DNA from: Solirubrobacteraceae bacterium
Lineage (GTDB): Bacteria > Actinomycetota > Thermoleophilia > Solirubrobacterales > Solirubrobacteraceae
Length of the DNA stretch: 64,000 nt
Direction of reading: 5' to 3'
NCBI GenBank assembly: GCA_017882455.1
Contig: JADGPL010000001.1
Coordinates: 186,001-250,000, forward strand
Position numbers and translations under genes: made by a program. Below are positions 2,522 through 14,533 of the stretch, piece after piece. The notes under the pieces are model-generated. The model ran no database searches, was not told the DNA's origin, and saw only the letters and a program-made list of their open reading frames with translations. The number at the start of each line of letters is the position of its first letter. Position 1 is the first letter of the stretch.

Positions 2522-3082
2522 CTACGCAGCCAACGCGTCGAAGCCGGTGGCGGGCAGCTCCTCCAGGGCGTCCTGGATCTCACGCACGGCCTGAGTGACC
2601 GTGCGCCTGGAGCTGGGGTTGAACAGAGGGCTGAGACCGTCGGTGAGGAACCTCCGAGCGAGCACGACGCCACGCGGGCTGACCGGGGCGCCCTCCTCGA
2701 GGAGTTCGGCCAGCTCCATGATCGCGTCGCGACCCTCCCTCACCGCCTGAGACTCGACGACGACCGCCGAGACGATCGCTCGCGGCTCGCGCCGGTCGAC
2801 GTACTCGATCAGCCGACGCAGGTTGCCGGCGATGTCGCGCCGGACGCGAGAGTCGGTCAGCTGGCGGGTGCGCAGCGTGAGCGCCTCGCTGGCTTCGCAC
2901 GGGGTACCAGCAGCGATCTGCCGATCGAGCCGTGCGCGCGTCGTGAACACCCGGAGACGTAGACCGAAGGGTGCGCCAGCGGGAGTCGATCGACCGTCGC
3001 GACGCGACGGCGCGACCTCGAAGCCGGGCCTCGTCGAAGGCATAGCGGGCGCAGAATGGTGAATGCCTCTTACAGTCCTCAT
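2522..3082 (-). CDS. unrecognised 186-aa soluble protein, candidate kdp co-regulated gene
   Basis: I do not recognise the family. The start is set by GGAGG eight bases before the ATG at 3082; a longer frame from 3118 has no such signal. The N-terminal 45 residues are basic and poor in predicted structure. The remainder is mostly charged helix (QLTDSRVRRDIAGNLRRLIE, GRDAIMELAELLEEGAPV) and ends VREIQDALEELPATGFDALAA. There is no signal peptide, membrane span or recognisable catalytic motif. Its upstream region (3134-3187) carries the same multi-block direct-repeat element as the kdp operon, which suggests shared control. It is a single-gene unit bounded by hairpins downstream. Real gene: likely; function: unknown. 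Confidence 0.65.
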   Translation of the reverse strand: MRTVRGIHHSAPAMPSTRPGFEVAPSRRDGRSTPAGAPFGLRLRVFTTRARLDRQIAAGTPCEASEALTLRTRQLTDSRVRRDIAGNLRRLIEYVDRREPRAIVSAVVVESQAVREGRDAIMELAELLEEGAPVSPRGVVLARRFLTDGLSPLFNPSSRRTVTQAVREIQDALEELPATGFDALAA

Positions 3083-3133
3083 GCTGAGTACCTCCGAGTC
3101 AACGTGGGATGAGAACAACCCGAGTGTTCCACC

Positions 3134-3187
3134 AGCCGTGTGACGCCCTCGTGACGAACCGGCGTTCGCTCATAACGATTTCGTGAA
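3134..3187 (-). promoter_or_regulatory. multi-block direct-repeat operator, copy 1 (shared with kdp)
   Basis: On the minus strand, blocks beginning TTCACGAAATC, GTTATGAGCGA, a 10-base spacer block, GTCACGAGGGC and GTCACACGGCT run end to end with steps of 11, 11, 10 and 11 bases. The same order and spacing occur at 9698-9751 before the kdp operon. Direct repeats at 11-bp steps are the known binding geometry of OmpR/PhoB-class response regulators, so KdpE is the natural candidate. The element ends 51 bases before the ATG at 3082. Confidence 0.6.
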
Positions 3188-3214
3188 GGTGTCTCTTGCG
3201 GCGCATGCGTCACC

Positions 3215-3784
3215 TCAGAAATGCCCCCTGACCGCCTCGACCGATATCCGGCGAGTGTCCTCGGGAGCCGGGCGCAGGATCAGGATCTCGGCGGGGACAC
3301 GCGCGAGCAGCCAGCGCAGATCGTCGTAGCCCAGTCCCCCGCGCTGGTCTTCGTCGGCCGAGACGATGATCCGGTCGAAATGCTCCTGCTGGAGCAGTTT
3401 GCGCAGCGCGTCACGCGCGGATCGCCCACGTCCCACCCTCGAATCGACCGGGACGCCCTGCGATGTGAGGCTCTGCTCGATCGCCTCGAGCAGAGGCATC
3501 CCACCGGCGCACTGCACCGGGAGAGCCGTCTCGATCGGCAGGTTCATGGGCACGCGCGCGAGGAAGGCCGGCATGATGATCGCGTTCTCTGCCTTGGCGA
3601 GGCGCACCGCGGCCTCGAACGCTCGTCGCGAGATCGCCTGGCCGGTGAACGGCAGCAGGATGCGACGCACGGGACGGGGACGGTTGCGCGCGGCGAGGCG
3701 CCCGTGCGGCGGCAGCCAGTAGCCCGCAAGGATCCCGAGCAGGACTCCCAGAACGCCGACCGCGACGGTCCCGAGCGCGTTCAT
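3215..3784 (-). CDS. universal stress protein domain with N-terminal membrane anchor
   Basis: 189 aa. Residues 4-26 form one hydrophobic segment (GTVAVGVLGVLLGILAGYWL). The soluble part starts RRILLPFTGQAISRRAFEAAVRLAKAENA, the usual first strand and helix of a UspA-type fold, and later has FDRIIVSADEDQRGG. The C-terminal LARVPAEILILRPAP matches the last USP strand. The ATG overlaps the stop of the KdpD sensor half by four bases (ATGA), so the two are probably translationally coupled. As last gene of the kdp operon it may act as an extra nucleotide-binding module in potassium sensing; that role is inferred from position only. Confidence 0.75.
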   Translation of the reverse strand: MNALGTVAVGVLGVLLGILAGYWLPPHGRLAARNRPRPVRRILLPFTGQAISRRAFEAAVRLAKAENAIIMPAFLARVPMNLPIETALPVQCAGGMPLLEAIEQSLTSQGVPVDSRVGRGRSARDALRKLLQQEHFDRIIVSADEDQRGGLGYDDLRWLLARVPAEILILRPAPEDTRRISVEAVRGHF

Positions 3785-4917
3785 GGCCTGTCCCCGTTTG
3801 GACGCCGGGTGCGGTCGGCGACGATACGCACGTCGACTCCGGGGAGGCTCTGCATGAGCCGCTGCGGCAGCGGAAGCCGCAGGCGGGCAAGACCGTGGGC
3901 CGGGCGTGAGTGGCCGAGCAGGATGTAGGTGGTCCCACGCCGGCAGGCAACGTCGACCACCGCTGCTGCCAGATCGTCGGACTCCTCCTCGAGCAGCCTC
4001 GCGCCGAGCACGGAGGCGAGCTGGCGCAGCGCGGACAGTGAGCGCTGCTCGTCATCGGATAGCTCCTGGCCGGGTGCCTTGACCCACAGGAGATCGAGCT
4101 CGGCGCCCAGCCGCTGGGCCGAGCGCCACGCACGGCGCACGAGGCGCTGCGCGCGCGGATAGGGCTCGACGAGCGCCATCAGGCGCTCGCCGACGGCCTG
4201 GGGCGCATCGGCGGCGAGGCTCTCCTCGCGCGAGCCGACGAGCTCGGTGGTCAGGCGCTTGGCGCCGACCTCCTCGGCGACCTGGCGGAGGGCCACCTCC
4301 CGCAGCGCAGCCAGGTTCTCGATGCGGAAGAAGTTGTTGAGCGCCGCGTCGATGCGCTCGAGCGGATAGATCCTGCCCGCGCGCAGCCGCTCGAGCAACG
4401 CCTCGGGGGTGAGATCGATCAGCACCACCTCATCGGCGCGACCGAGGATCGCGTCGGGGATGGTCTCGCGAACACGCACGCCGCTCAGCTCGGTGATGTG
4501 GTCGTTGAGCGACTCGAGGTGCTGGACGTTGAGCGTCGAGAGGACGTCGATCCCCGCCGCCAGGACGTCCTCCACGTCTTCGTAGCGCTTTCGGTGCTCG
4601 GTGCCGGGCGCGTTCGTGTGGGCCAGCTCGTCTATCAGGCAGAGCTCGGGGGCTCGGCTCAGGATCGCGGGTAGGTCCATCTCCTCGAGCACAGTTCCGC
4701 GGTAGCGGACGCTGCGTCGGCTCACGGCCGGAAGGCCCTCGGCCAGCCGGGCGGTCTCGGCCCGGCCGTGGGTCTCGAGCAGGCCCACGGCCACATCTCT
4801 GCCCGCTTGCAGCTCAGCGTGCCCTTCGAGCAGCATGCGATAGGTCTTGCCCGCCCCGGCAGCCATCCCGAGGAAGACCTTCAGACGGCCCCGCGGCTGA
4901 CCGGCGGATGCGTCCAT
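3781..4917 (-). CDS. kdpD: KdpD N-terminal sensor half (KdpD domain plus USP domain, no kinase)
   Basis: 378 aa, far shorter than full KdpD (about 900 aa). It starts with the KdpD sensor domain: Walker A-like GMAAGAGKTYRML near residue 17 and Walker B-like LCLIDELAHTNAPG near 92, then NVQHLESLNDHI. A universal-stress-protein domain follows (AQRLVRRAWRSAQRLGAELD to the C-terminal GVDVRIVADR). The transmembrane, HisKA and ATPase parts of KdpD are absent. A DUF4118-containing histidine kinase that looks like the missing half is encoded separately at 10560-12122. N-terminal-only KdpD proteins are known from some cyanobacteria and Firmicutes. The gene lies in the kdp operon 34 bases after kdpB. 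Confidence 0.88.
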   Translation of the reverse strand: MDASAGQPRGRLKVFLGMAAGAGKTYRMLLEGHAELQAGRDVAVGLLETHGRAETARLAEGLPAVSRRSVRYRGTVLEEMDLPAILSRAPELCLIDELAHTNAPGTEHRKRYEDVEDVLAAGIDVLSTLNVQHLESLNDHITELSGVRVRETIPDAILGRADEVVLIDLTPEALLERLRAGRIYPLERIDAALNNFFRIENLAALREVALRQVAEEVGAKRLTTELVGSREESLAADAPQAVGERLMALVEPYPRAQRLVRRAWRSAQRLGAELDLLWVKAPGQELSDDEQRSLSALRQLASVLGARLLEEESDDLAAAVVDVACRRGTTYILLGHSRPAHGLARLRLPLPQRLMQSLPGVDVRIVADRTRRPNGDRP

Positions 4918-9697: not shown

Positions 9698-9751
9698 TCG
9701 TGTGTCACGTACTCATGACGATCGGGGCGACGCGCATAACGATTTTGTGAC
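9698..9751 (-). promoter_or_regulatory. kdp operon operator, copy 2 of the multi-block element
   Basis: Minus-strand blocks GTCACAAAATC, GTTATGCGCGT, a 10-base spacer, GTCATGAGTAC and GTGACACACGA follow each other with the same 11, 11, 10, 11 steps as at 3134-3187. AAATCGTTATG and the GTCA starts are conserved between copies. It ends 18 bases before the first ORF of the kdp operon, a suitable place for activation by KdpE, an OmpR-class activator. Confidence 0.65.
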
Positions 9752-9802
9752 GACGGCATTGGGTGACCCTACGAGGCCGTGAGAGTCGCGCAATCGGTAA
9801 TA

Positions 9803-9852: not shown

Positions 9853-10563
9853 TCAGCCGGCGAAGCGGTAGCCGACGCCCGGATCGGTCACGATGTAGCG
9901 CGGTCCCGCCACGCCCTCCGGCTCGATCTTGGCGCGCAGGCGCGCGATGTGGGTGCGCAGCGGTTGCATGTCGTCGACGTACTCGGGTCCCCACACCTCG
10001 GTCAACAGCTTGCGGTGAGTCATCAGGCGCCCGCGGTTGCGCACGAGCGCACGCAGCAGGTCGAACTCGATCGGGGTGAGATGAACCGGCTCGCCGCCGC
10101 GCCGCACCACCCGCGCGGCGAGGTCCACCTCCAGGTCCTCGACCACGATGCTCGGCTCCTCCTCCACGCGTGCTGCACGCCGAAGCGCCGCCTGGAGCCT
10201 GGCAACCAGCTCGCGTGTGCCGAACGGCTTGGTGATGTAGTCGTCGGCTCCGGCCTCGAGCGCCCTGACCTTCTGCTCCTCCTCGCCCACGGCCGAGAGC
10301 ACGAGGATCGGCATCTCGCTCCACTCCCGCAGCCTGCGCGTCAGCTCGATCCCGTCGAGGTCGGGGAGCACGAGGTCGATGATCGCGGCCTCCGGCGGGC
10401 GCACCGCCGCGAGGTCCAGCGCCTCGGAGGCCGTTTCGGCGGGCACCGCCTGGAAGCCGGCCTCACGCAGCACCACCTTCAGCGCGCGCACGATCTGGGG
10501 CTCGTCGTCGACGACCAGCACACGCGGTGGCGGCGGCGGCTCGGCCGCCGAGGGCGTGCTCAC
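9853..10563 (-). CDS. kdpE: KdpE-type OmpR-family response regulator
   Basis: 236 aa. The receiver domain starts RVLVVDDEPQIVRALKVVLREAGF; the phosphoacceptor is the D in AIIDLVLPDLDGIEL, and GADDYITKPFGTRELVARLQ carries the conserved lysine. The C-terminal winged-helix DNA-binding domain contains LTPIEFDLLRALVRNRGRLMTHRKLLTEVWG and ends DPGVGYRFAG. The GTG start overlaps the kinase stop by four bases (GTGA), so kinase and regulator are coupled. Closest family is KdpE (DxxLPDxDG, GRLMTHRxLL), and the neighbouring kdp genes support it. It is expected to bind the direct repeats before kdp. Confidence 0.9.
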   Translation of the reverse strand: MSTPSAAEPPPPPRVLVVDDEPQIVRALKVVLREAGFQAVPAETASEALDLAAVRPPEAAIIDLVLPDLDGIELTRRLREWSEMPILVLSAVGEEEQKVRALEAGADDYITKPFGTRELVARLQAALRRAARVEEEPSIVVEDLEVDLAARVVRRGGEPVHLTPIEFDLLRALVRNRGRLMTHRKLLTEVWGPEYVDDMQPLRTHIARLRAKIEPEGVAGPRYIVTDPGVGYRFAG

Positions 10564-12122
10564 GTGGCCGACCCGCGTGGGCTGTTGGAGGCCGCCGCTC
10601 GAGCGTCGTGCCCTGGGCCGGCTCCTGTAGGCGCATCGTGGGCGGGCTCTTCGCCGGCCACCTCGATCGGGAACTCGAACACGAACGTGGCACCCTGCCC
10701 CGGCAGCGACTCGACGTGCAGCGAGCCTTCGTTGGCCTCGGCAAAGCCACGTGCGATCGCCAGCCCCAGCCCCGAGCCGCGGTGTTCGCCTCCAGGCGTA
10801 CCGGCGCGATAGAACGGCTCGAAGACGCGCTCGAGCTGCGCCGGCGGTATCCCGGGCCCGCGATCGACGACGCGGACGACCACACGATCGCCGCCGGCTC
10901 CCGGCCGCTCGCCCGCGACGGAACCGCGGCTCGGCGCCGCCAGCCTGGGGCCGCCCGCCAAGCTGCGCACGGCCCGTGCCCTGACCGACACCGGATGCCC
11001 GCCTGAGTGTCGCCTGGCGTTCTCGAGCACGTTTACGAACGCTCTCTCCATCTGCACGGCATCGATGTTCACGAGCGGGAGCTCGGGATCGAGCGAGAGC
11101 ACGAACTCATCCGGGCCGCAGGCCAGCTCGCCGAGAGCGGCGCCGATCAGCTCCTCGATCGAGGTCGGATGGCGACGCGGCTCGGCCGCGCCCGCCTCCA
11201 GTCGCGAGAGATCGAGCAGGTTGTCCACCAGGCGCGACAGTCGCCGCGTCTCCTCCTGGATCACGCTGGCCAGCTCCTGGCGCTCGGACGCCGAGATCGA
11301 GGACGACGCCACGGCCTCGCCCGCGGCCGAGATCGCGGTCAGCGGCGAGCGCAGATCGTGGGAGACAGCGCGCAGCAGCGCCGTCTTGACCGTGTCCGCC
11401 CTGCGCAGCGCGGCCGTCTCGACCACGCCGCCGAGCAGCGCCTCGCGCTCCAGGGCGGCGCTGAGCAGCGCCTCCAGAGCAGGCACGACCCGCTCCTGCA
11501 GGCGCCGCAGGTTCTCCTCCGAGGTTCCCGCGCCCACGAGCAGGGTTCCCAGCCGGGTCGTGCCCTCGCGCAGCGGGAAGGCGACGCTGCGCTCGTCGCC
11601 ATCGACCGCGTCCATGTCGATCGCGGCCGAGCTCAATTCGAGCGTGCTCGCCAGCCGTGCCGCGGCTGTGGGCAGCGCCTCGGCGAGACTGTTGCCGCGG
11701 AGCAGCAACCTCGCCATCTCGGCGGCGAGGTCCGCCTCGCGACGGCGCTCCTCGGCGTCGCGCGTGCGCGCCCTGGTGAGCTCCGCCAGGGAGCTGGCCA
11801 GCGCGGCCACCACGAGGAAGGCGACGAGGGCGACCCAGTTGCTGGAGTCACGAATCGTGAGCTCGCCCACCGGCGGCAGGTGGAAGAAGTTGAAGGCCAG
11901 GGCGCTGACGACCGCCGTGGCATACCCCAGCCACAGACCCCAGATGATCGACACGACGAGCACGGCGGGCAGGTACACGACGCTGAGCGACCCGACCGGG
12001 GCGACGTGCTTGAGCGGATAGACGATCAGCGTGCTGAGGCCCACCGCCGCGAGCGCGACCACGGCGCCGGCTCGGCGCGGCGGCGGGTTGGGCGAGAGCA
12101 GCATTCCGAACGGAGAAAACAC
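10560..12122 (-). CDS. DUF4118 sensor histidine kinase: C-terminal half of a split KdpD
   Basis: 520 aa from the GTG at 12122. That start is chosen because TAGGCT (a -10-like box) ends eight bases upstream, a pattern repeated at many starts here; the frame stays open to 12251, but that extension is low-complexity and Arg-rich. The DUF4118 membrane block comes first (VVALAAVGLSTLIVYPL, SLSVVYLPAVLVVSIIWGLWLGYATAVVSALAFNFF), then a coiled linker, a GAF-like region and HisKA with the phosphoacceptor H in LLRAVSHDLRSPLTAIS. HATPase boxes are NVLENARRHSGG, DRGPGIPP and GSGLGLAIARGFAEAN. This is the domain order of KdpD after its cytoplasmic sensor, which here is a separate protein (3781-4917). It should phosphorylate KdpE. 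Confidence 0.85.
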   Translation of the reverse strand: MFSPFGMLLSPNPPPRRAGAVVALAAVGLSTLIVYPLKHVAPVGSLSVVYLPAVLVVSIIWGLWLGYATAVVSALAFNFFHLPPVGELTIRDSSNWVALVAFLVVAALASSLAELTRARTRDAEERRREADLAAEMARLLLRGNSLAEALPTAAARLASTLELSSAAIDMDAVDGDERSVAFPLREGTTRLGTLLVGAGTSEENLRRLQERVVPALEALLSAALEREALLGGVVETAALRRADTVKTALLRAVSHDLRSPLTAISAAGEAVASSSISASERQELASVIQEETRRLSRLVDNLLDLSRLEAGAAEPRRHPTSIEELIGAALGELACGPDEFVLSLDPELPLVNIDAVQMERAFVNVLENARRHSGGHPVSVRARAVRSLAGGPRLAAPSRGSVAGERPGAGGDRVVVRVVDRGPGIPPAQLERVFEPFYRAGTPGGEHRGSGLGLAIARGFAEANEGSLHVESLPGQGATFVFEFPIEVAGEEPAHDAPTGAGPGHDARAAASNSPRGSAT

Positions 12123-12130
12123 CGAGACCC

Positions 12131-12136
12131 AGCCTA
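12131..12136 (-). promoter_or_regulatory. -10-like box of the kinase-kdpE operon
   Basis: TAGGCT on the minus strand, eight bases before the GTG at 12122, with no Shine-Dalgarno sequence. It implies a leaderless or nearly leaderless transcript. Confidence 0.45.
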
Positions 12137-12290
12137 ATGGCGAGCGAGACGGGATTTCTCCCCGCCTCGCTCGCCGCGCCCTACGCGGTCCGGTGCGCCC
12201 TGTGCGGCGAGGCTCGAGCCGGCCGAGGGTGGCCTCGCCTGATCTGTCCACCGTCCCCTGACCATGATCCCCGCTGCTCGGCGCCCGGAA

Positions 12291-12329
12291 GTGATCCCGC
12301 GGTGATCAAGCTGTGATCATCGGGTGATC
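12291..12329. promoter_or_regulatory. four tandem GTGATC repeats, exact 11-bp period
   Basis: GTGATC begins at 12291, 12302, 12313 and 12324, separated each time by five variable bases. Read on the minus strand, the units are GATCAC plus five, close to the 11-nt direct-repeat units bound by actinobacterial PhoP and similar OmpR-class regulators. The array lies between the divergent kinase-kdpE operon (start 12122) and the peptidase gene (start 12416). Confidence 0.65.
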
Positions 12330-12415: not shown

Positions 12416-14533
12416 ATGAGATCCCCCACGCGCCACAACACAGCGCTGAGCCTCTCTGCCCTGATCGCCGGGGTGGTCGCGCTGTTTGTGCTTGCGGGCA
12501 CAGCGCTCGCCCTCTCTCCGCTTCCACGCTCCGACTACACGGTGCGCGCGGCCTGTGGCGCGCCGAGCCCAGGGCGAGCCTCGTGCCTGGCGCTGCAGCT
12601 CGTGCCGAGGAGCGCCGAAGCGCAGGCGCACACCCACCCGCTCGCAGCCGCCGCCCCGATCGGGGGACCGGCCTCCGCGGCCTCAGAAGGGGCATTCGGC
12701 CTGACCCCCGGCGATCTCCACACCGCCTATCAGCTCCCGGATAAAACGACGGGTGAACAGACGATCGCCCTGGTCGACGCCTACAACGATCCGACGGCCG
12801 AATCGGACCTGAGGAGCTACGACCGTGAGCTCGGCCTGCCGCCGTGCACGAGCGCGAACGGCTGCTTCAAGAAGGTCAACCAGCGAGGCGAAACGACGAA
12901 CCTGCCGTTTCCCAGGACCAGCGCGGAACTGGAAGCCAGCGAAGGCCCAATGGCCGAAGAAGCCGAAGGCTGGGGCGGAGAGATCTCGCTGGACATCGAG
13001 GCCGCGCACGCAACCTGCCAGAACTGCAAGATCCTGCTCGTCGAGGCGAGCTCCCCCGAATACGAAGATCTGGAAAAGGCCGAGCACGCCGCGGTGCAAC
13101 TCGGAGCGACGGAGATCTCGAACTCCTGGGGAGGCCCCGAGCTCGGAGAGACTCCCGCAATCGAGTCCGCGAGCCAGTTCAACCGTCCCGGGATCGTGAT
13201 CACGGCGTCAGCAGGCGATGACGGCTATCTCGAATGGGCCGCTCAAGCGCCGTCCCGCGAACCGAGCTTCCCCGCCTCCTCGCCCCACGTGGTCGCCGTC
13301 GGAGGCACACGGCTGACCACTGCTGGGACGGGCGCATGGCAGAGCGAGAAGGTGTGGAACGACGGCGGCGAGAGCAACGGCAAAAAGGACGGCTACGGAG
13401 CAGGTGGAGGCGGCTGCAGCGAAGTCTTCGAAGCTCAACCCTGGCAGCGCGGCGTCGCGGATTGGTCGGAAGTCGGCTGTGGGCTGAAACGGGCCGTGTC
13501 CGACGTCGCCGCAGATGCCGATCCCTACAGCGGCCTGGCCGTCTACTACACGAGCAGAGAATGCGAATCCGAACACGAAGGGCAGATCGTCCATTGGTGC
13601 ACCTACGGCGGCACCAGCCTCGCCTCCCCGATCGTCGCCTCGACCTACGCCCTCGCGGGTGGCGCCCACGGCGTCAGCTATCCGGCCAAGACACTGTACG
13701 AAAACACCACCGCCCATCCAGCATCCCTGCACGACATCGCCTCCGGCTCGAACGGGGAATGCCTCAAGCCCTTCAACACAAAAACGGGCGTCTCCGGGTG
13801 CACGAGCTCCGAAGAGGCCGAAGCCAGCTGCTCATCGAAGGCCATCTGCCTGTCTCGCTTGGGCTTCGACGGCCCGAGTGGAGTGGGAACGCCGCACGGC
13901 ATCGTGGCCTTCGAGCTGCCCTCCACCGAAGGCGGACCCAGCGAAGCTGAAATCCTGAAAAAAGAGGAAGCGGAACGCCAGGAAGAAGCCCAGCGCAGAG
14001 AAGAAGGCAAAAGCGAAGAAGAAGCCGAACGCCGGGAAGAAGCAGAACGCCAGGAACAGCTCGAACGTGAAGAACGCAAGCGCCTGGAAGAAGCCGGCGA
14101 AAGGTCCTCCGGGGGCAAAACGATCTCATCGAACGGCCTCGTGGCGCAGCCCAGCTCCCCGTCTCCTGCCCCAGCCCCGGCCCCGGCGAGCACCACTGTC
14201 GCCAGCGGCCCCGCCACGCCTCAGATCTCATCGCTCGCCCTCACGGTGAGGGCCCTCTTCGCCCTGAACACGACCCGGCCGCGAGCCACCCAGGTGGCGT
14301 TCGCCTTCACCCTCAACACCGCCACCCATGTCCGGATCTCCCTCGCCAAGCGCGTCAGGGCTCACGGGCACACGCGCTGGCAGGTCACGCGGTACTCGCT
14401 CACGATCTCCGCGGGCAGCGGGCGCATCGGACGACACCTCACAGGGCGGGGGGCCCTGTCGCCCGGCTTCTACCGTCTGACCGCCACGCCCACCCACGGC
14501 GCGGCACGGTCGATCTACTTCCAGATCGGCTAG
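12416..14533 (+). CDS. secreted sedolisin-like (S53) serine-carboxyl peptidase with coiled-coil and C-terminal domain
   Basis: 705 aa from the ATG at 12416; TAGGAC ends ten bases upstream, and a clean signal peptide (MRSPTRHNT then ALSLSALIAGVVALFVLAG) follows. The catalytic pattern is that of S53: E189 and D193 in GGEISLDIEAAH (the E-x3-D spacing of sedolisins), an Asp in TASAGDDG (268/269), and S401 in YGGTSLASPIVAS. After the catalytic domain come a Lys/Glu-rich segment of about 55 residues likely to be coiled coil, a Pro/Ala/Ser linker and a beta-rich basic C-terminal domain of about 100 residues. The pro-region is very short compared with classic sedolisins. GAA is preferred for Glu, unlike most neighbours. 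Likely an extracellular peptidase; substrate unknown. Confidence 0.85.
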   Translation: MRSPTRHNTALSLSALIAGVVALFVLAGTALALSPLPRSDYTVRAACGAPSPGRASCLALQLVPRSAEAQAHTHPLAAAAPIGGPASAASEGAFGLTPGDLHTAYQLPDKTTGEQTIALVDAYNDPTAESDLRSYDRELGLPPCTSANGCFKKVNQRGETTNLPFPRTSAELEASEGPMAEEAEGWGGEISLDIEAAHATCQNCKILLVEASSPEYEDLEKAEHAAVQLGATEISNSWGGPELGETPAIESASQFNRPGIVITASAGDDGYLEWAAQAPSREPSFPASSPHVVAVGGTRLTTAGTGAWQSEKVWNDGGESNGKKDGYGAGGGGCSEVFEAQPWQRGVADWSEVGCGLKRAVSDVAADADPYSGLAVYYTSRECESEHEGQIVHWCTYGGTSLASPIVASTYALAGGAHGVSYPAKTLYENTTAHPASLHDIASGSNGECLKPFNTKTGVSGCTSSEEAEASCSSKAICLSRLGFDGPSGVGTPHGIVAFELPSTEGGPSEAEILKKEEAERQEEAQRREEGKSEEEAERREEAERQEQLEREERKRLEEAGERSSGGKTISSNGLVAQPSSPSPAPAPAPASTTVASGPATPQISSLALTVRALFALNTTRPRATQVAFAFTLNTATHVRISLAKRVRAHGHTRWQVTRYSLTISAGSGRIGRHLTGRGALSPGFYRLTATPTHGAARSIYFQIG

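What the first reader, a model, noticed from the sequence alone, without database searches (positions are those of the whole stretch)
12291..12329. Four GTGATC repeats with exact 11-bp period
Starts at 12291, 12302, 12313 and 12324. One helical turn spacing places all copies on the same DNA face, as in PhoB/PhoP boxes. The array sits in a divergent promoter region between the kinase-kdpE operon and a secreted peptidase, so one regulator could control both.
Basis: partly seen in the sequence, partly recalled or inferred. Interest (0 to 1): 0.65.

Follow-up and report, generated by a model that had tools for sequence, protein, structure and literature searches.

The report
Four-copy regulator-binding array near potassium genes
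A soil actinobacterium carries four copies of a short DNA word, one helical turn apart, between a potassium-sensing gene pair and a secreted protein-digesting enzyme; it looks like a docking row for a phosphate-starvation-type gene switch, a known kind of control element in an unexpected place.

Summary
In detail: GTGATC starts at 12291, 12302, 12313 and 12324, and no chance model reproduced it. It is the only such period-11 array in the window. Read on the minus strand it is GATCAC-N5 x4, core TCAC-N7. Three related species keep the same divergent kinase/S53-peptidase arrangement and carry a TCAC-N7 x4 array at the same place and register with other letters (mostly CGTCAC). Family-wide, contiguous TCAC-N7 x4 arrays mostly lie within about 120 bp upstream of, and point at, pst, alkaline phosphatase, PhoX, phosphoesterase and PAP2 genes, so this is the group's Pho box. 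The KdpE box, derived here from kdpF promoters, differs in letters (CGTCAC-NNAAT-CGTTAT) and layout (0, 11, 32, 43). The window array scores like Pho boxes (18, 19 and 4.5 for its three pairs; Pho sites' own mean 20) and not like KdpE boxes (-5 to -17). The relatives' first pair, however, is KdpE-like. Best reading: a Pho-type OmpR/PhoB-family operator, probably acting toward the kinase-kdpE operon. Regulator and target are inferred, not shown. Two genomes with the same gene pair lack the array.

The parts
12291..12329 (-). Four-unit tandem operator, GATCAC-N5 x4 read on the minus strand (GTGATC on plus), period 11 bp
12139..12175 (-). Inverted repeat (15-pair hairpin) between the array and the kinase -10; compensatory pair changes across the four array-bearing genomes plus G110
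12131..12136 (-). Likely kinase -10 (TAGGCT); a similar motif stands before many kinase orthologues, with or without the array
   Evidence: by eye; inference from position next to the start codon
10560..12122 (-). KdpD-like sensor kinase without the KdpD N-terminal domain (DUF4118 + HisKA + HATPase); likely GTG start at 12122, next ATG 12104
9853..10563 (-). kdpE response regulator (receiver + winged helix)
12416..14533 (+). Secreted S53 (sedolisin/kumamolisin-type) peptidase; ATG at 12416, alternative GTG 12383
9703..9753 (-). KdpE box of the kdpF promoter (CGTCACAAAATCGTTATG ... CGTCATG-N4-CGTGAC), comparison site
3139..3189 (-). Second KdpE-like box, upstream of a small gene at 2522-3118

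Best explanation
The array is a four-half-site operator for a dimerising OmpR/PhoB-family regulator, of the Pho-box type used in this family of Solirubrobacterales. Protomers bind head to tail on one DNA face, one per 11-bp unit. In this genome the most likely binder is the phosphate-starvation regulator of the pst region; the candidates are the receiver-less winged-helix protein encoded just ahead of pstS and the two full-length regulators flanking pst. The units point toward the kinase-kdpE operon, as Pho boxes here point at their targets, so the likeliest effect is a second, phosphate-responsive input into the potassium-sensing operon through a leader of about 170 nt that contains a conserved hairpin. 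An effect on the divergent peptidase is possible. Shown: the array, its conservation in place and register, and the family-wide association of such arrays with phosphate genes. Inferred: the regulator, the target and the sign of control.
For: TCAC core invariant in 15 of 16 columns among 4 species against 98 of 281 flanking and 4 of 21 spacer columns (Fisher p 3e-6 and 5e-6). 28 exact TCAC-N7 x4 places listed in 121 family genomes against 1 for the reversed pattern; of the genes they point at, most annotated ones are pst parts, winged-helix-pst, alkaline phosphatase, PhoX, phosphoesterase or PAP2. Within this genome, the only non-overlapping WTCAC triple-repeat hits (<=1 mismatch) are this array, one upstream of the pstS region and one upstream of a PKD protein with a weak purple-acid-phosphatase N-domain match next to PstS-like genes. 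Pho weight matrix: pairs 18.1, 19.1, 4.5 (Pho sites' own mean 20.2) against KdpE -4.9, -6.8, -16.7; the two best Pho hits in 64 kb are the array. K+/phosphate cross-regulation is known in E. coli (PMC5458449).
Against: In the three related species the first unit pair (CGTCAC-NNNAT-CGTYAC) scores better as a KdpE box (19.4, 15.2, 21.0) than as a Pho box (10-13). The array ends about 168-231 bp from the kinase start, farther than nearly all annotated Pho boxes here, while its distance to the peptidase start is constant (about 80-88 bp). Two genomes with the same divergent genes have no array. The Pho matrix was built from sites selected for TCAC, so it discriminates weakly at the other positions.
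Confidence: 0.5

Rival explanations
1. KdpE binds the array: autoregulation of the kinase-kdpE operon, with or without control of the peptidase, by extra KdpE half-sites.
For: The first unit pair in G104, G109 and G113 resembles the genus's KdpE box at kdpF promoters (seen in the same genome for G104 and G109); pattern CGTCACNNNATCGTYAY hits 14 places in 24 genomes, 0 controls, and these are mainly kdpF promoters plus these arrays. E. coli KdpE also uses 6-bp direct repeats 5 bp apart (PMC3264566).
Against: In this genome the units are GATCAC, and KdpE scores are negative although its own kdpF box is intact. Layout 0/11/22/33 is that of Pho boxes; KdpE boxes are 0/11/32/43. Kinase orthologues without the divergent peptidase often have kdpF boxes but no array. 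The search pattern was partly drawn from the arrays themselves.
Confidence: 0.25
2. Another OmpR-family regulator (neither Pho nor KdpE) binds the array and mainly controls the peptidase, reading it as GTGACG/GTGATC-N5.
For: Constant distance to the peptidase start in four species; array found only where the peptidase is the neighbour, apart from a degraded remnant in G110. One reversed CGTCAC array in another genus lies upstream of a papain-family peptidase.
Against: S53 peptidases elsewhere in the genus have no array, nor do two with the kinase neighbour. The papain case is a single example.
Confidence: 0.2
3. Chance repeat or neutral remnant with no regulatory role.
For: Absent from two genomes with the same gene arrangement.
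Against: No equal in 60 simulated windows; core columns far more conserved than flanks and spacers.
Confidence: 0.05

Closest known systems
PHO box / PhoP box of Streptomyces coelicolor (GTTCACC, 11-nt direct repeat units) and E. coli PhoB box
   Same: 11-bp head-to-tail direct repeats with a TCAC core and several units in a row; the same arrays precede pst and phosphatase genes in this family
   Different: All four units here are GATCAC rather than TTCAC; location upstream of a kdp sensor operon and a peptidase; farther from the start codon
KdpE box (E. coli TTTATA-N5-TTTACA)
   Same: OmpR-class site with 6-bp half-sites and 5-bp spacers; same operon family; relatives' first pair resembles this clade's KdpE box
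   Different: Letters in this genome and the 0/11/22/33 layout do not fit this clade's KdpE box (0/11/32/43)
K+/phosphate cross-regulation in E. coli (PhoR phosphorylating KdpE, PMC5458449)
   Same: Couples potassium and phosphate homeostasis
   Different: There the coupling is by kinase cross-talk; here it would be at an operator

Membership tests
Pho box (PhoB/PhoP-type operator) | 11-bp head-to-tail direct repeats with the group's core word | tested here: met
   TCAC-N7 x4, exact
Pho box (PhoB/PhoP-type operator) | Score against a matrix from the genus's pst promoters | tested here: met
   Two of three pairs 18-19 against own mean 20; third pair 4.5
Pho box (PhoB/PhoP-type operator) | Lies just upstream of, and points at, a recognised phosphate-starvation gene (typical, not strictly required) | tested here: not met
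   Neighbours are a kdp sensor kinase and an S53 peptidase; 168 bp from the kinase. So it is described as Pho-box-type, not filed as a proven Pho box
Pho box (PhoB/PhoP-type operator) | Bound by the Pho response regulator under phosphate limitation | not testable with these tools
   needs binding or expression data
KdpE box | Half-site letters as in the same genome's kdpF promoter | tested here: not met
   Scores -4.9 to -16.7
KdpE box | Two 11-bp pairs 32 bp apart, last unit 11 nt before the -10 | tested here: not met
   Contiguous 0/11/22/33 array
KdpE box | Half-site letters, judged on the orthologous arrays of relatives | tested here: inconclusive
   First pair fits KdpE (15-21 against own mean 32), other pairs do not consistently

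The most novel reading that the evidence does not exclude
An operator array between a potassium-sensing operon and a peptidase has kept its position and 11-bp register while its letters changed from KdpE-like (CGTCAC) to Pho-like (GATCAC) in all four units, moving the operon from potassium to phosphate control: operator-level rewiring between paralogous regulators.
Probability: 0.18. Interest if true: 0.6.

Novelty: new member of a known kind. Interest (0 to 1): 0.38.

Why it matters
It gives a testable Pho-box definition for a little-studied actinobacterial order, a separate KdpE-box definition, and one locus where the two kinds of site are hard to tell apart. If the array is Pho-controlled, it would couple phosphate starvation to the potassium sensor operon at the DNA level, where E. 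coli couples them by kinase cross-talk.

Tried and rejected
Exact GTGATC x3 in family genomes: only this genome, because the letters outside TCAC are not conserved. GATC or Dam-type methylation cluster: rejected, relatives' units are mostly CGTCAC without GATC. Known RNA family or riboswitch in the leader: no Rfam hit at gathering threshold. Arrays upstream of other S53 peptidases in the genus: none as strong. Array in the window's kdpE-kdpA gap: no contiguous 4-unit array, a differently spaced KdpE box instead. GTCAC x4 across the order: few hits, mixed genes, some upstream of phosphoesterase-like genes (by eye), so CGTCAC letters alone do not exclude Pho.

Full report
What is there. GTGATC starts at 12291, 12302, 12313 and 12324. 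Among periods 7-40 the window has one such place at period 11, and 60 simulated windows had none at any period. The genes around it are a minus-strand cluster (short KdpD-like kinase with DUF4118, HisKA and HATPase, then kdpE, then kdpF, kdpA, kdpC, kdpB as read by position, a stand-alone KdpD sensor domain and further small genes) and a plus-strand secreted peptidase related to kumamolisin and sedolisin, family S53. The organism is a Solirubrobacterales MAG by its relatives' record titles.

Conservation. Kinase orthologues were fetched from the genus and from named genomes. Four genomes (G000, G104, G109, G113) carry a four-unit array, all units TCAC except one TTAC, at the same place between kinase and peptidase. 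TCAC columns are invariant in 15 of 16 positions against 98 of 281 flanking columns. The letters before TCAC differ: GA in this genome, mostly CG, with CC or GG in some units, in the others. G110, which lacks the peptidase at this place, keeps a remnant of about two units. G074 and G083 have the divergent pair without an array, and no other kinase locus has one.

What such arrays are. TCAC-N7 x4 is rare by chance: 1 place for the reversed pattern against 28 listed forward places in 121 family genomes. Genes they point at include receiver-less winged-helix genes ahead of pstS, pstS, a permease taken as pstC, two PhoA-type alkaline phosphatases, a PhoX, a phosphoesterase, a phosphodiester glycosidase and, in G035, PAP2. 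A few have unrelated or unclear neighbours (L156, L158, L159, L163, L170), and four (L150, L151, L153, L172) plus L161 precede a TIM-barrel protein of unknown role. In most cases the units run in the direction of the target. This matches published PHO boxes built from 11-nt direct repeats, GTTCACC in Streptomyces (PMC4415409). In the window's own genome the pst region has the same kind of array, TTTCACAGATTTTTCACGATTGGATAAC.

KdpE box. Ten kdpF promoters aligned by script plus four pattern-hit sites (one a duplicate locus, one not at kdpF) gave CGTCAC-NNAAT-CGTTATG, then CGTCATG-N4-CGTGACG 32 bp on, with a -10 about 11 nt after the last unit. Weight matrices separate the classes. The window array is Pho-like (18.1, 19.1, 4.5) and not KdpE-like (-4.9, -6.8, -16.7); the relatives' first pair is KdpE-like (15-21) with Pho scores of 10-13. 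The KdpE sites are closely related to each other, so the KdpE matrix may be too strict.

Which gene. Orientation points to the kinase. Distance to the kinase is about 168-171 bp in two measured cases and 231 in G113; distance to the peptidase is about 80-88 bp in all four (the window value counted from the sequence). A 15-pair inverted repeat just upstream of the kinase -10 has 3 pairs with compensatory changes and some G-U intermediates across the four array genomes and G110, and is not found at the other genus kinase loci, some of which have unrelated dyads. An RNA hairpin there would need a transcript starting upstream, which would fit an array-driven promoter toward the kinase. This is inference; no start site was mapped.

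Judgement. A real, conserved OmpR/PhoB-class operator; Pho-type in this genome is the best single reading (0.5), KdpE second (0.25). Coupling of K+ and phosphate control has a precedent in E. coli through PhoR and KdpE (PMC5458449). No paper on the Pho regulon of this class of bacteria was found in the library.

Noticed in passing
L141:8116-8560 and L154, L160, L165, L167, L067: A receiver-less OmpR-type winged-helix protein (about 110-150 aa, Trans_reg_C only) is the first gene behind the Pho-type array, ahead of pstS in most of the loci seen; a candidate phosphorylation-independent Pho regulator.
   Followed up: partly
window 3781-4917 and 10560-12122: KdpD is split: a stand-alone KdpD sensor domain (NCBIfam KdpD non-kinase) downstream of kdpB and a separate short DUF4118 kinase upstream of kdpE.
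   Followed up: partly
window 3139-3189: A second KdpE-like box with the 32-bp pair spacing upstream of an uncharacterised gene (2522-3118); a G074 site looks like its orthologue.
   Followed up: partly
window 12139-12175: Covarying inverted repeat upstream of the kinase start, no Rfam match, seen in the array-bearing genomes and G110.
   Followed up: partly
L143:3874-3910 and L069:3434-3470: TCAC arrays upstream of a large protein with glycosyltransferase domains (PHP-associated domain in one), possibly a phosphate-saving lipid or polymer pathway.
   Followed up: no
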